NCBI RefSeq assembly: GCF_019801145.1
Contig: NZ_JAHVJQ010000003.1
Span: 248,001-312,000, forward strand
Direction: 5' to 3'
DNA: 64,000 nucleotides
From: Leisingera aquaemixtae
GTDB taxonomy: Bacteria; Pseudomonadota; Alphaproteobacteria; Rhodobacterales; Rhodobacteraceae
Made by a program: the position numbers and the translations under genes. Positions 30,759-33,080 of this stretch are shown here, piece by piece. Position 1 is the first letter of the stretch. Each line of letters opens with the position of its first letter. The notes below the pieces were generated by a model. It worked only from the letters and a program-made list of their open reading frames with translations. It had not been told where the DNA came from and searched no databases.

Positions 30759-30772
30759 TTGACCTGGGTCAA
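30759..30772 (+). promoter_or_regulatory. Perfect Fnr/Dnr-type box ahead of the DUF6455 genes
   Basis: TTGACCTGGGTCAA is a perfect palindrome fitting TTGAC-N4-GTCAA, the site type of FnrL and Dnr regulators in Rhodobacteraceae. It lies 62 bp before the first DUF6455 start. A TAAG-containing -10 candidate (30793-30798) sits where a class II Fnr promoter would place it. Activation under low oxygen or NO is the inference. Confidence 0.6.
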
Positions 30773-30834
30773 ATTCCTGGCTGTTCCCAATCGCTAAGCT
30801 GCCCCGGCAATGCATGATTACGGGGGACTGCGCG

Positions 30835-31098
30835 ATGACCGCCGAAGCCGACCTGAAAACCCACGCCGAACTGTTCGACCGGATGGCCTGCGCCGTGGGC
30901 CTGGATCTGGAAGAGGAGGCCGTGGCCGGCACCCTGCGCTTTGACGAGATCGCCGAAGCGGTGCTGCGCTGCACCCGCTGCGGCGGCGTCGGCGCCTGCC
31001 GCAAGTGGCTGGCCGAGGGGCTGCGCCCGGGCGCAGACGCGCCGGATTTCTGCCGCAACCGCGACCTGCTCGGCTATCTGAATGAGCAGCAGGCCTGA
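30835..31098 (+). CDS. DUF6455 family protein, copy 1
   Basis: 87 residues, mostly helical, no signal peptide. Four cysteines in a pattern shared with its neighbours: RCTRCGGVGAC (CxxC-x5-C, about residues 46-55) and PDFCRN near the C-terminus. Such an arrangement could bind a metal or an Fe-S cluster. First of three tandem related genes behind an Fnr-type box. Start ATG at 30835, after GGGGGAC. Function unknown. Confidence 0.82.
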   Translation: MTAEADLKTHAELFDRMACAVGLDLEEEAVAGTLRFDEIAEAVLRCTRCGGVGACRKWLAEGLRPGADAPDFCRNRDLLGYLNEQQA

Positions 31099-31128
31099 GC
31101 GCGCTGTCCCAGCCAAGGAGTGCAAACC

Positions 31129-31389
31129 ATGAATCCATTGGGTGAGCCGCTGCGCCATTTGCGGCTGCTGTCAAAGATGGGCGACACCGTCGGCGCCGAT
31201 CTGTCCGGCGCCTTTGCCGCGGGCCGGATCGGGCACCAGGAATGGGCGGCAATGGTCACCGCCTGCCGGGGCTGCGAAGCGCCGGAGCAATGCGCGGCGT
31301 TTCTGGCGGAGCATGAGCGTGCCAGCGCCCCGATGCCAGGCTGCCGCAATGCCGAAGAGCTGAAGCGCCTCAAGGAACTGGCCCGATGA
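31129..31389 (+). CDS. DUF6455 family protein, copy 2
   Basis: 86 residues, related to the genes on both sides. It opens PLGEPLRHLRLLSKMGDTVG and keeps the cysteine pattern as ACRGCEAPEQC (CxxC-x5-C) with MPGCRN near the end. AAGGAG precedes the ATG at 31129 by 8 nt, favouring it over the in-frame GTG at 31120. Its stop overlaps the start of copy 3 by 4 bp. Function unknown. Confidence 0.82.
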   Translation: MNPLGEPLRHLRLLSKMGDTVGADLSGAFAAGRIGHQEWAAMVTACRGCEAPEQCAAFLAEHERASAPMPGCRNAEELKRLKELAR

Positions 31390-31661
31390 AGGACATGGCA
31401 GCGGAGGCAGAGGGCCTCGGAAACATCTTCCGCCACTTGTGGCTGATGCGGTCGGTGGCCGAGGCTGCGGGCGTCGACTTGGACCGGGCGGTGCAGGACG
31501 GGCGGCTCAGCGGGCTGGACTATGCCAGGATGGTCACCGGATGCCGCGGCGCCGGCTGCAGCAAGTCCTGCGCCCTGTGGCTCTCCTCCCGCCGCGATGA
31601 TGCGCCCGCGGTGCCGGAGTTCTGCCCCAGCGCGGATGTCTTCAAGCGGCTGATGCCCTAG
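31386..31661 (+). CDS. DUF6455 family protein, copy 3
   Basis: 91 residues. The same layout as copies 1 and 2 but with shifted cysteine spacing: GCRGAGCSKSC (C-x4-C-x3-C) and PEFCPS near the end. FRHLWLMRSVAEAAGVDLDR parallels the N-terminal helix of copy 2. Its ATG overlaps the stop of copy 2. The altered spacing suggests the copies have diverged in what they bind. Function unknown. Confidence 0.82.
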   Translation: MKDMAAEAEGLGNIFRHLWLMRSVAEAAGVDLDRAVQDGRLSGLDYARMVTGCRGAGCSKSCALWLSSRRDDAPAVPEFCPSADVFKRLMP

Positions 31662-31706: not shown

Positions 31707-31961
31707 CTACAGCTTGGAATGCGTGCCGTCGCACAGGGGTTTCTTGCCCGAATGCTTGCAGCCGCAGAAGAACAGTTTGCCGTCTTTCTCTGCCTTGTAC
31801 TTGACCGGTTCGAACGCCGTGTCCTTGTGCGAGCCGTCGCAGAACGGCTGGCGGCTGGATTTGCCGCAGGCGCACCAGAAATAGGTCTTTCCCTCCTTCA
31901 CCTCGACGGGGAAGGGGGCTTTCTGCGCGATCTCCGGTTCCGGAGTGCTGTCATTCGGCAT
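31707..31961 (-). CDS. Double CDGSH iron-sulfur protein
   Basis: 84 residues with two CDGSH-type [2Fe-2S] sites: CACGKSSRQPFCDGSH (about 31-46) and CGCKHSGKKPLCDGTH (about 66-81), each giving three Cys and one His. Small soluble electron-transfer or redox-sensing protein of the tandem-CDGSH kind. It converges on the DUF6455 trio, 45 bp from its end. About 290 bp of non-coding DNA separates it from the sulfotransferase. Confidence 0.92.
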   Translation of the reverse strand: MPNDSTPEPEIAQKAPFPVEVKEGKTYFWCACGKSSRQPFCDGSHKDTAFEPVKYKAEKDGKLFFCGCKHSGKKPLCDGTHSKL

Positions 31962-32249: not shown

Positions 32250-33080
32250 GTGCTTTCACGACTCTTTAGCCAAAAACCTGAAGAGAGCGAGAGCGAAGTC
32301 AGCGGTTCCTCTGACCTGAAGCGTATCGTTTTCTTTCACGTCCCGAAATGCGGGGGCTCAAGCGTAAGAGATGCGCTGAAGAGCGCATACCGGAAGAAAA
32401 ACCTCACCGCGAGAAACATCGTATTTCACTTGGACTCGCATACGAGCAAATCGTCTTCGGATTTGATGGACGAAAACCTTGCAGTCCACAGGGAGCATGT
32501 TTTCATGTATAAATTCATGCTCCGAAGGTATTTTCTGTTGACCGGGCATTTCCCCTATTCGGATTCCGTTGCGAAGGCCAAAACGAAAAATGACCTTTTT
32601 ATCACGCTGATCCGGGATCCGTTTGACCGGAAACTGTCCCAGTATTACTACAACCGGCACAAGGCGGATCACCAGGCACATTTCGGAACCGATTTGAGCC
32701 TGGAAGACTGGCTTCAAAAATCGATCGAATCCACTAACCCCGGTTCTTACACACGGTACTTCTGCGGCAATGTGCGGCTGGAGCGGGGAGCCGATGAAAC
32801 GGATGGGCAGTTCGTTAAAGGCCGGGTCGACGCAGCAATAAAAAACCTTCGTACCTTTGATGTCGTGGGAAATGTGTCGGACATGGCAGGGTTCGCCGGG
32901 GAAGTGTCAAGGAAATCAGGGCTTTCGGTCAGCATTGACCATCTGCGCAGGTCTCCCAAATCGGGCTACCCAAAGTTTCGCGAGCAGCCGAAGCACATTC
33001 AAGCATTGCTGGAAGCGTCCTGTGAGCACGATGTCAGAATTTATGAATCCGTGTTCGGCGCAGGCAGCGCCGGCGCGTAG
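32250..33080 (+). CDS. Sulfotransferase family protein, probably acquired
   Basis: 276 residues. The PAPS 5'-phosphosulfate loop is IVFFHVPKCGGSSVRDALKS (about 27-46) and the 3'-phosphate site LIRDPFDRKLSQYYYNR (about 125-142). Resembles family-2 sulfotransferases acting on carbohydrates. GTG start after GGAGTGGGAA. Base composition (near 50 percent GC by eye) and AT-ending codons differ sharply from neighbours, suggesting transfer. It stands alone; a target could be surface polysaccharide, but no such gene adjoins it. Confidence 0.83.
   Translation: MLSRLFSQKPEESESEVSGSSDLKRIVFFHVPKCGGSSVRDALKSAYRKKNLTARNIVFHLDSHTSKSSSDLMDENLAVHREHVFMYKFMLRRYFLLTGHFPYSDSVAKAKTKNDLFITLIRDPFDRKLSQYYYNRHKADHQAHFGTDLSLEDWLQKSIESTNPGSYTRYFCGNVRLERGADETDGQFVKGRVDAAIKNLRTFDVVGNVSDMAGFAGEVSRKSGLSVSIDHLRRSPKSGYPKFREQPKHIQALLEASCEHDVRIYESVFGAGSAGA

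What the first reader, a model, noticed from the sequence alone, without database searches (positions are those of the whole stretch)
30759..31661. Three tandem DUF6455 cysteine proteins behind a perfect Fnr-type box
TTGACCTGGGTCAA lies 62 bp before three consecutive small genes of one family. Each encodes four Cys: a CxxC-x5-C cluster (copies 1 and 2) or C-x4-C-x3-C (copy 3), plus one Cys near the C-terminus. The box position fits class II activation by FnrL or Dnr. Local duplication with changed Cys spacing suggests three related metal or Fe-S binding proteins made under low oxygen or NO. I know of no assigned function for the family.
Basis: partly seen in the sequence, partly recalled or inferred. 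Interest (0 to 1): 0.78.

Follow-up and report, generated by a model that had tools for sequence, protein, structure and literature searches.

The report
Low-oxygen operon of small cysteine proteins
Three neighbouring genes for small, related, cysteine-rich proteins of unknown function sit behind a switch that bacteria use to turn genes on when oxygen runs low, and the same switch stands in front of most relatives of these genes that were examined, so the family appears to belong to the low-oxygen response.

Summary
TTGACCTGGGTCAA (30759-30772) lies 62 bp before three DUF6455 genes (PF20056, E 2e-27 to 3e-20). One correction: copy 1 has five Cys, not four.

At most one mismatch to the box was found upstream of 80 of 80 named loci (78 perfect) and 64 of 75 loci of unnamed relatives. 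At 40-115 bp it is 61 of 75, against 15 of 1101 control upstreams. Anchoring 109 divergent upstreams on the box alone reveals one further conserved element, a -10 hexamer 22 nt downstream. That puts the box centre at -41.5, the class II position. In the host genome the same pattern stands before fnrL/hemN, ccoN and ccoG. In other genera of the family, 39 of 39 genomes with DUF6455 have FnrL, against 21 of 31 without.

'Local duplication' is wrong as stated: copies A, B and C are old groups kept in order.

Mechanism is inferred: small helical four-Cys proteins with the CxxC-x5-C spacing of E. coli FNR and WhiB1, probably [4Fe-4S]-binding adaptors made at low oxygen. Some distant relatives carry a DUF1127-like module (known to bind RNA or sensor kinases), which points to a regulatory role. 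Cofactor and partner are untested.

The parts
30759..30772 (+). FNR-type box TTGACCTGGGTCAA, palindrome TTGAC-N4-GTCAA
   Evidence: conserved upstream of relatives
30795..30800 (+). -10 hexamer TAAGCT, 22 nt after the box (class II geometry)
   Evidence: position predicted from 109 divergent upstream regions anchored on the box: A...T at this offset in 71 of 109, 14 and 13 at the two neighbouring offsets, mean about 3 at other offsets
30807..30807 (+). predicted transcription start (box centre at -41.5)
   Evidence: inference; no transcript data
30822..30827 (+). probable ribosome binding site GGGGGA
   Evidence: read from the sequence
30835..31098 (+). DUF6455 copy 1 (type A), 87 aa, Cys 19, 46, 49, 55, 73
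   Evidence: AlphaFold2 pLDDT 90.7, five helices
31129..31389 (+). DUF6455 copy 2 (type B), 86 aa, Cys 46, 49, 55, 72
31386..31661 (+). DUF6455 copy 3 (type C), 91 aa, Cys 53, 58, 62, 80; start overlaps the end of copy 2 by 4 bp
   Evidence: AlphaFold2 pLDDT 92.8

Best explanation
30759-31661 is an FNR-activated operon. Shown by comparison: a class II promoter (FNR-type box centred at -41.5, -10 at 30795-30800) conserved in front of DUF6455 genes of the family, and an old A-B-C triplet of paralogues kept together in many roseobacters. Inferred: when oxygen falls, FnrL with its own [4Fe-4S] cluster binds the box and recruits RNA polymerase, and three small cytosolic helical proteins are made. 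In each, three Cys around the end of helix 3 and start of helix 4, plus one before the last helix, hold a metal centre, most likely an oxygen- or NO-labile [4Fe-4S] cluster (about 50%; Zn about 30%; thiol redox only about 15%). The proteins then act as small adaptors that bind a regulatory partner (RNA, RNA polymerase or a sensor kinase) and adjust the low-oxygen programme, returning to apo form when oxygen or NO appears. The partner may differ between A, B and C.
For: Box: at most 1 mismatch in 80 of 80 named loci (78 perfect, 53-83 bp from the start, 150 bp searched), 64 of 75 loci of unnamed relatives (250 bp), 24 of 26 loci of a phylum draw (700 bp; 21 of them within 110 bp) including other alphaproteobacterial families and two genomes outside the class, 7 of 15 loci of a class draw. 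Controls: 36 of 1101 upstreams of other ORFs in 250 bp; at 40-115 bp 15 of 1101 against 61 of 75. Promoter: the only conserved element outside the box and the GG next to it is a -10 at fixed spacing. All five 4th paralogues sampled (same genus) have TTGCG-N4-ATCAA with a hexamer fitting A...T at the same offset (read), a form listed as an FnrL site at R. sphaeroides hemN (PMC2908626, passages). The host's other perfect boxes precede fnrL/hemN, ccoN and ccoG, each over its NCBIfam cut-off. Co-occurrence with FnrL 39/39 against 21/31 (Fisher p 1.1e-4), with FixO 38/39 against 23/31 (p 0.008). Outside the family, 4 of 12 neighbourhoods hold cco/fix genes: ccoP-ccoG-fixH-P-ATPase, then one CBS-like gene, then DUF6455 on the other strand (L216); fixL/fixJ within 4-6 kb (L217, L218); fixJ and fixK within 4-6 kb (L221). 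Metal site: C-x8-C with a middle Cys at +3 or +5 in 280 of 283 distinct proteins; confident helical models. C-x2-C-x5-C equals E. coli FNR Cys 20/23/29 (PMC4601167, passages) and WhiB1 Cys 37/40/46 (PMC6282962, passages). Regulatory role: DUF1127-like module N-terminal to the domain in some distant members (5 of 25 segments at 5 bits or more, against 2 sequences in 40 shuffled sets; best E 3.6e-7; hhalign probability 94). DUF1127 proteins bind RNA (CcaF1) or sensor kinases (PMC12501420, section 32).
Against: No expression, binding or cofactor data for these genes were found. In roseobacters the recurring neighbours (M48 peptidase, UPF0029, glyoxalase and others) carry no low-oxygen theme, and 8 of the 12 outside neighbourhoods showed no fix genes by eye. 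FixL and FixK matches in L217, L218 and L221 are below their NCBIfam cut-offs, as is the truncated FixJ of L221. The window copies lack the DUF1127 module, and single-protein Pfam scores for it are below cut-off (E 0.013 and 0.59). The CxxC-x5-C likeness is three residues in a loop; the fourth Cys lies on the other side compared with WhiB1. No convincing PDB match: Foldseek nothing with E below 1; by sequence best E 0.016, to one stretch of a malate dehydrogenase. 11 of 75 relatives' loci, 2 of 26 and 8 of 15 lack the box at one mismatch.
Confidence: 0.55

Rival explanations
1. Same FNR-driven operon, but the four Cys hold a structural Zn and the proteins are small assembly or stability factors for low-oxygen respiratory enzymes such as cbb3 oxidase.
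For: Four-Cys sites of small bacterial proteins are often Zn (general knowledge). Position close to ccoP-ccoG-fixH-P-ATPase in one genome and co-occurrence with FixO 38/39 against 23/31.
Against: One genome (G050) has DUF6455 without a FixO match; in the host the genes lie on another contig than FixO. The middle Cys moves between +3 and +5, with 15 of 283 proteins holding both, which I judge easier for a cluster loop than for a Zn knuckle (inference).
Confidence: 0.28
2. The operon answers to NO or denitrification through a Dnr-type regulator rather than to oxygen through FnrL.
For: Dnr and FnrL share such sites (PMC5398030, passages). NnrS, an NO-linked family, is commoner in DUF6455 genomes: 25 of 39 against 10 of 31, p 0.015. 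The host has a CRP/FNR protein without the N-terminal Cys cluster within 1 kb of an NnrS gene (L206, C13), which I take to be Dnr-like.
Against: 14 of 39 DUF6455 genomes lack an NnrS match, but none of the 39 lacks FnrL. The CTG core also occurs in the host's fnrL/hemN, ccoN and coxA-like boxes.
Confidence: 0.2
3. The proteins are thiol buffers or disulfide switches without a metal.
For: CxxC motif in most members; no signal peptide seen by eye; small.
Against: Core Cys conserved in fixed loop positions rather than one redox pair; production at low oxygen, where disulfides are less favoured, fits poorly (inference).
Confidence: 0.12

Closest known systems
DUF6455 (Pfam PF20056)
   Same: All three proteins are members by score; all 56 rows of alignment A3, the three included, match the model.
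   Different: The family has no assigned function in Pfam. The only paper of the held library naming it does so as a line in an RNA-seq table in Azospirillum (PMC11819568, +1.67 log2 with ethylene; passage and section 10).
FnrL regulon promoters of Rhodobacteraceae (fnrL/hemN, ccoN, ccoG)
   Same: Same box pattern in the host; box to start 60 bp for the ccoG frame and 74 bp for the ccoN frame at the starts taken, against 62 bp here.
   Different: The genes encode an uncharacterised Cys protein family; in the passages seen of the 2010 regulon tables such genes could only hide among unnamed hypothetical proteins.
WhiB-like (Wbl) proteins of actinobacteria
   Same: Small, helical, four conserved Cys including C-x2-C-x5-C (WhiB1 Cys 37, 40, 46).
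   Different: Fourth Cys is C-terminal here, N-terminal (Cys 9) in WhiB1; G[VI]WGG in 0 of 283; no Wbl model among the Pfam matches of 56 members.
FNR N-terminal cluster motif
   Same: E. coli FNR Cys 20, 23, 29 has the same spacing.
   Different: No CRP-type effector or DNA-binding domain match in the window proteins; FnrP and the host FnrL use C-x2-C-x7-C.
DUF1127 small proteins (CcaF1, YjiS)
   Same: Some distant DUF6455 proteins carry a DUF1127-like segment.
   Different: The window proteins have none.

Membership tests
DUF6455 (PF20056) | score over the curated cut-off of 23.7 bits | tested here: met
   95.6, 79.2, 72.6 bits
DUF6455 (PF20056) | conserved Cys core and distal Cys before a final helix | tested here: met
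FNR class II regulated operon | FNR-type palindrome upstream, conserved in orthologues | tested here: met
FNR class II regulated operon | box centred at -41.5 with a -10 hexamer 22 nt after the box | tested here: met
   by comparison of 109 upstreams; no mapped start
FNR class II regulated operon | FnrL binding and FnrL-dependent transcription in vivo | not testable with these tools
   needs ChIP and a deletion strain
Wbl | four Cys holding a [4Fe-4S] cluster | not testable with these tools
   Cys present, cluster unknown
Wbl | Cys order: distal Cys N-terminal of CxxC-x5-C | tested here: not met
   distal conserved Cys is C-terminal
Wbl | G[VI]WGG motif | tested here: not met
   0 of 283
Wbl | shared fold | tested here: inconclusive
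   no PDB match of weight, Wbl not listed
DUF1127 | PF06568 match in the window proteins | tested here: not met
   no match up to E 1
DUF1127 | DUF1127-like segment in distant DUF6455 proteins | tested here: inconclusive
   profile evidence positive, curated Pfam cut-off not reached

The most novel reading that the evidence does not exclude
DUF6455 proteins are a proteobacterial counterpart of Wbl proteins: small oxygen- or NO-labile [4Fe-4S] adaptors, made only when FNR is active, that give FNR a second, cluster-gated layer acting on RNA or sensor kinases. This would be direct in the fusions with a DUF1127-like module and via partners for the stand-alone A, B and C copies.
Probability: 0.2. 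Interest if true: 0.85.

Novelty: new variant of a known kind. Interest (0 to 1): 0.62.

Why it matters
It assigns a family without function to the low-oxygen regulon on comparative evidence strong enough to act on: box, spacing, -10 and co-occurrence with the regulator agree across many genera. It gives a cheap, specific test (fnrL deletion, transcript start at 30807, anaerobic purification) and, through the DUF1127-like fusions, a first hint of what kind of partner to look for. If the proteins hold oxygen- or NO-labile clusters, FNR would drive production of further gas-sensitive proteins in marine bacteria that live at shifting oxygen.

Tried and rejected
Recent local duplication: rejected by the tree. 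First genes of three all fall on side A (26 of 26); second genes in two B groups except L184 and L194 (24 of 26); third genes in clade C except the same two (25 of 27). The tree has few columns, an unsettled bootstrap and a midpoint root, and rests on 112 of 283 distinct proteins.

A label I withdrew on checking: the 104-aa gene behind one host box (L288) looked dksA-like by eye but has no Pfam match, so it is not counted as an FNR target here. The coxA-like protein (L295) is truncated by the locus and below its NCBIfam cut-off.

R. capsulatus hypothetical FnrL targets likewise (passages). A tblastn of copy 1 against plasmid records found 5 of 72,556, all Thioclava, 36-39% identity.

Rows dropped or not seen: one search covers 75 loci; L092 gave no profile hit and was left out, and several DUF6455 places were not fetched (the tandem clusters of G014 and G016, some fourth paralogues). 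One search kept the best 80 of 107 relatives, found with type A peptides. G052 and G071, below cut-off, count as DUF6455-negative in the co-occurrence test. In one search, L245 and L246 are doubtful frames but are kept in the 15; both were left out of the 25 segments. In one search the seven segments were picked by hand, so repeats the test without picking. Genomes are not independent in the Fisher tests. Of the 24 host boxes, 15 were held as loci and looked at.

Literature: 'PF20056' gave no paper and 'DUF6455' one, in the open PMC library only; subscription papers are not covered.

Full report
What is there. The window lies in a 4.88 Mb genome (G000:C3:248001-312000) whose nearest named relative in the scan is Leisingera sp. 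JC1 (99% identity for copy 1). TTGACCTGGGTCAA is at 30759-30772, 13 bp after the stop of a UPF0029 gene and 62 bp before the ATG of the first of three ORFs, 30835-31098, 31129-31389 and 31386-31661. All three are DUF6455. A fourth DUF6455 gene stands alone elsewhere in the genome (C1:764211-764462). Copy 1 has five Cys, copies 2 and 3 four; the extra Cys19 is present in 8 of 19 same-genus first copies.

Is the box more than chance? In the genome the exact pattern occurs at 24 places, against 5 for the pattern read backwards. 15 of the 24 were held as loci and the adjacent frames read. Ten adjacent proteins were scanned: hemN and fnrL share one box (L293), then ccoN (L292) and ccoG (L290), each over its NCBIfam cut-off; an Rrf2 regulator (L296), a DUF465 and a sulphur-transport protein match Pfam; a cytochrome oxidase subunit I (L295) is truncated; two have no match (L285, L288). 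Upstream of DUF6455 genes a box with at most one mismatch was found in 64 of 75 relatives' loci (53 perfect; 250 bp searched), 80 of 80 named loci (78 perfect; 150 bp), 24 of 26 loci of a phylum draw (700 bp, 21 within 110 bp) and 7 of 15 of a class draw (from 400 bp above the open frame to the domain). Controls, upstream of other ORFs of 200 aa or more in the same loci: 36 of 1101 in 250 bp; at 40-115 bp 15 of 1101 against 61 of 75. The longer search spans have no control of their own. Misses: G027, G084, G054b, G060b, G082b, G085c and the five fourth paralogues; L116 and L118; eight. The fourth paralogues have TTGCG-N4-ATCAA at 67-68 bp instead, a form listed as an FnrL site at R. sphaeroides hemN (PMC2908626, passages).

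Promoter anatomy. Of 155 upstream regions, 139 have the box at 40-90 bp and 109 remain after removing pairs 80% or more identical. Aligned on the box alone, columns before the box carry at most 0.18 bits. Inside the box a CTG core is common (85, 79 and 70 of 109); after it come G14 and G15 (73 and 98 of 109; the window has AT there), and one further element, T36 A37 ... T41 counted from the first base of the box. A...T is met at offset 36 in 71 of 109, with 14 and 13 at the two neighbouring offsets and about 3 on average elsewhere; after thinning to flanks under 50% identical it is 55 of 87. A hexamer at -12 to -7 there sets the start at +48 from the box start and the box centre at -41.5, the class II position. 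In the window the hexamer is TAAGCT, 30795-30800. The five fourth paralogues sampled, all of this genus, have a hexamer fitting A...T at the same offset (read).

Which regulator. The genome has FnrL (C-x2-C-x7-C, L205), a CRP/FNR protein close to an NnrS gene that I take to be Dnr-like (L206), and other CRP/FNR proteins. Among 70 genomes of other genera of the family, FnrL (NF045989) is present in 39 of 39 with DUF6455 over cut-off and 21 of 31 without; FixO 38 of 39 and 23 of 31; NnrS 25 of 39 and 10 of 31 (Fisher; shared ancestry not corrected). In the same genus 20 of 21 have FnrL; the miss is a 90% complete assembly. FnrL is the likelier regulator; Dnr is not excluded.

The proteins. In 283 distinct proteins the core is C-x8-C with a middle Cys at +3 (224), at +5 (41) or at both (15); 3 differ. 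The +5-only form occurs only in last genes of clusters (34 of 60 third genes, 7 of 27 second genes of two). In the tree all first genes of three lie on one side of a 100/99 branch (side A); third genes form clade C (99/94) apart from two clusters; second genes form a main B clade (99/93) and a smaller Leisingera-type group (100/85), again apart from two. So the triplet is old and kept in order, and the Cys shift is a change among third-gene types. AlphaFold2 gives confident helical models for copy 1 (pLDDT 90.7, pTM 0.81) and copy 3 (92.8, 0.81). The core Cys of copy 1 sit at the end of helix 3, in the loop and in helix 4, the distal Cys just before helix 5.

Context. Among roseobacters the upstream neighbours recur across loci (30 loci compared, 7 printed); those named in the window by Pfam (M48 peptidase, UPF0029, glyoxalase) give no functional hint. 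Outside the family, 12 neighbourhoods were looked at; 4 hold low-oxygen genes: ccoP, ccoG, fixH and a copper-type P-ATPase, then a CBS-like gene, then DUF6455 on the other strand (L216); fixL/fixJ within 4-6 kb (L217, and L218 where fixJ is by eye); fixJ and fixK within 4-6 kb (L221). FixL, FixK and the truncated FixJ of L221 are best matches but below the NCBIfam cut-offs. The other 8 showed none by eye.

A lead on function. Some distant DUF6455 proteins have an N-terminal extension resembling DUF1127. hhalign of seven hand-picked segments against 30 DUF1127 rows gave probability 94 and score 37.7, column shuffles at most 16.3 in 60. Without picking, 5 of 25 N-terminal segments score 5 bits or more, against 2 sequences in 40 shuffled sets; best 20.7 bits, E 3.6e-7. 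Single-protein Pfam scores stay below cut-off. DUF1127 proteins bind RNA (CcaF1) or sensor kinases (PhoR) (PMC12501420, abstract and section 32; PMC10253847, passages). Others have an N-terminal hydrophobic segment (L235, L237, L244, by eye).

How it most likely works. Shown by comparison: class II FNR promoter, old triplet, conserved Cys. Inferred: metal centre, most likely [4Fe-4S], since the spacing equals that of E. coli FNR and WhiB1 (passages) and the middle ligand is movable; action as a small regulatory adaptor. It works like a Wbl protein at most by analogy; it is not one, because the Cys order and G[VI]WGG fail.

Novelty. DUF6455 is named in one paper of the held open library, as a line in an RNA-seq table; PF20056 in none. 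The regulon assignment, the promoter geometry and the DUF1127 link were therefore not found under those names there. Subscription literature was not searched.

Noticed in passing
window 31707-31961 (-): Convergent gene for a protein with two CDGSH-type iron-sulfur stretches directly downstream of the operon (PF09360).
   Followed up: no
L077 5712-5966 (+), i.e. G000:C1:764211: Fourth DUF6455 paralogue with the variant box TTGCGCCACATCAA at 68 bp and a -10-like hexamer in the class II position; it groups with single genes of other genera.
   Followed up: partly
L096 (G006): Third copy reduced to a 30-residue remnant without the Cys core.
   Followed up: no
L144 6629-6910 and L090: The two full-length proteins of 283 that depart from the Cys core: a third copy lacking the third core Cys, and one with a longer loop.
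   Followed up: no
   Followed up: no
G000 contig C15, 35206-49904: Six perfect TTGAY-N4-RTCAA matches within 15 kb, five of six with an NGCC core; possibly repeats inside coding sequence.
   Followed up: no
window 32250-33080 (+): Sulfotransferase-like gene (PF03567) in sequence that reads more A+T-rich than its surroundings (by eye); possible recent arrival.
   Followed up: no
L235, L237, L244: Distant DUF6455 proteins with an N-terminal hydrophobic segment, probably membrane-anchored (by eye).
   Followed up: no
Thioclava plasmid records (5 hits): DUF6455 genes also lie on large Thioclava replicons (0.43-0.83 Mb).
   Followed up: no
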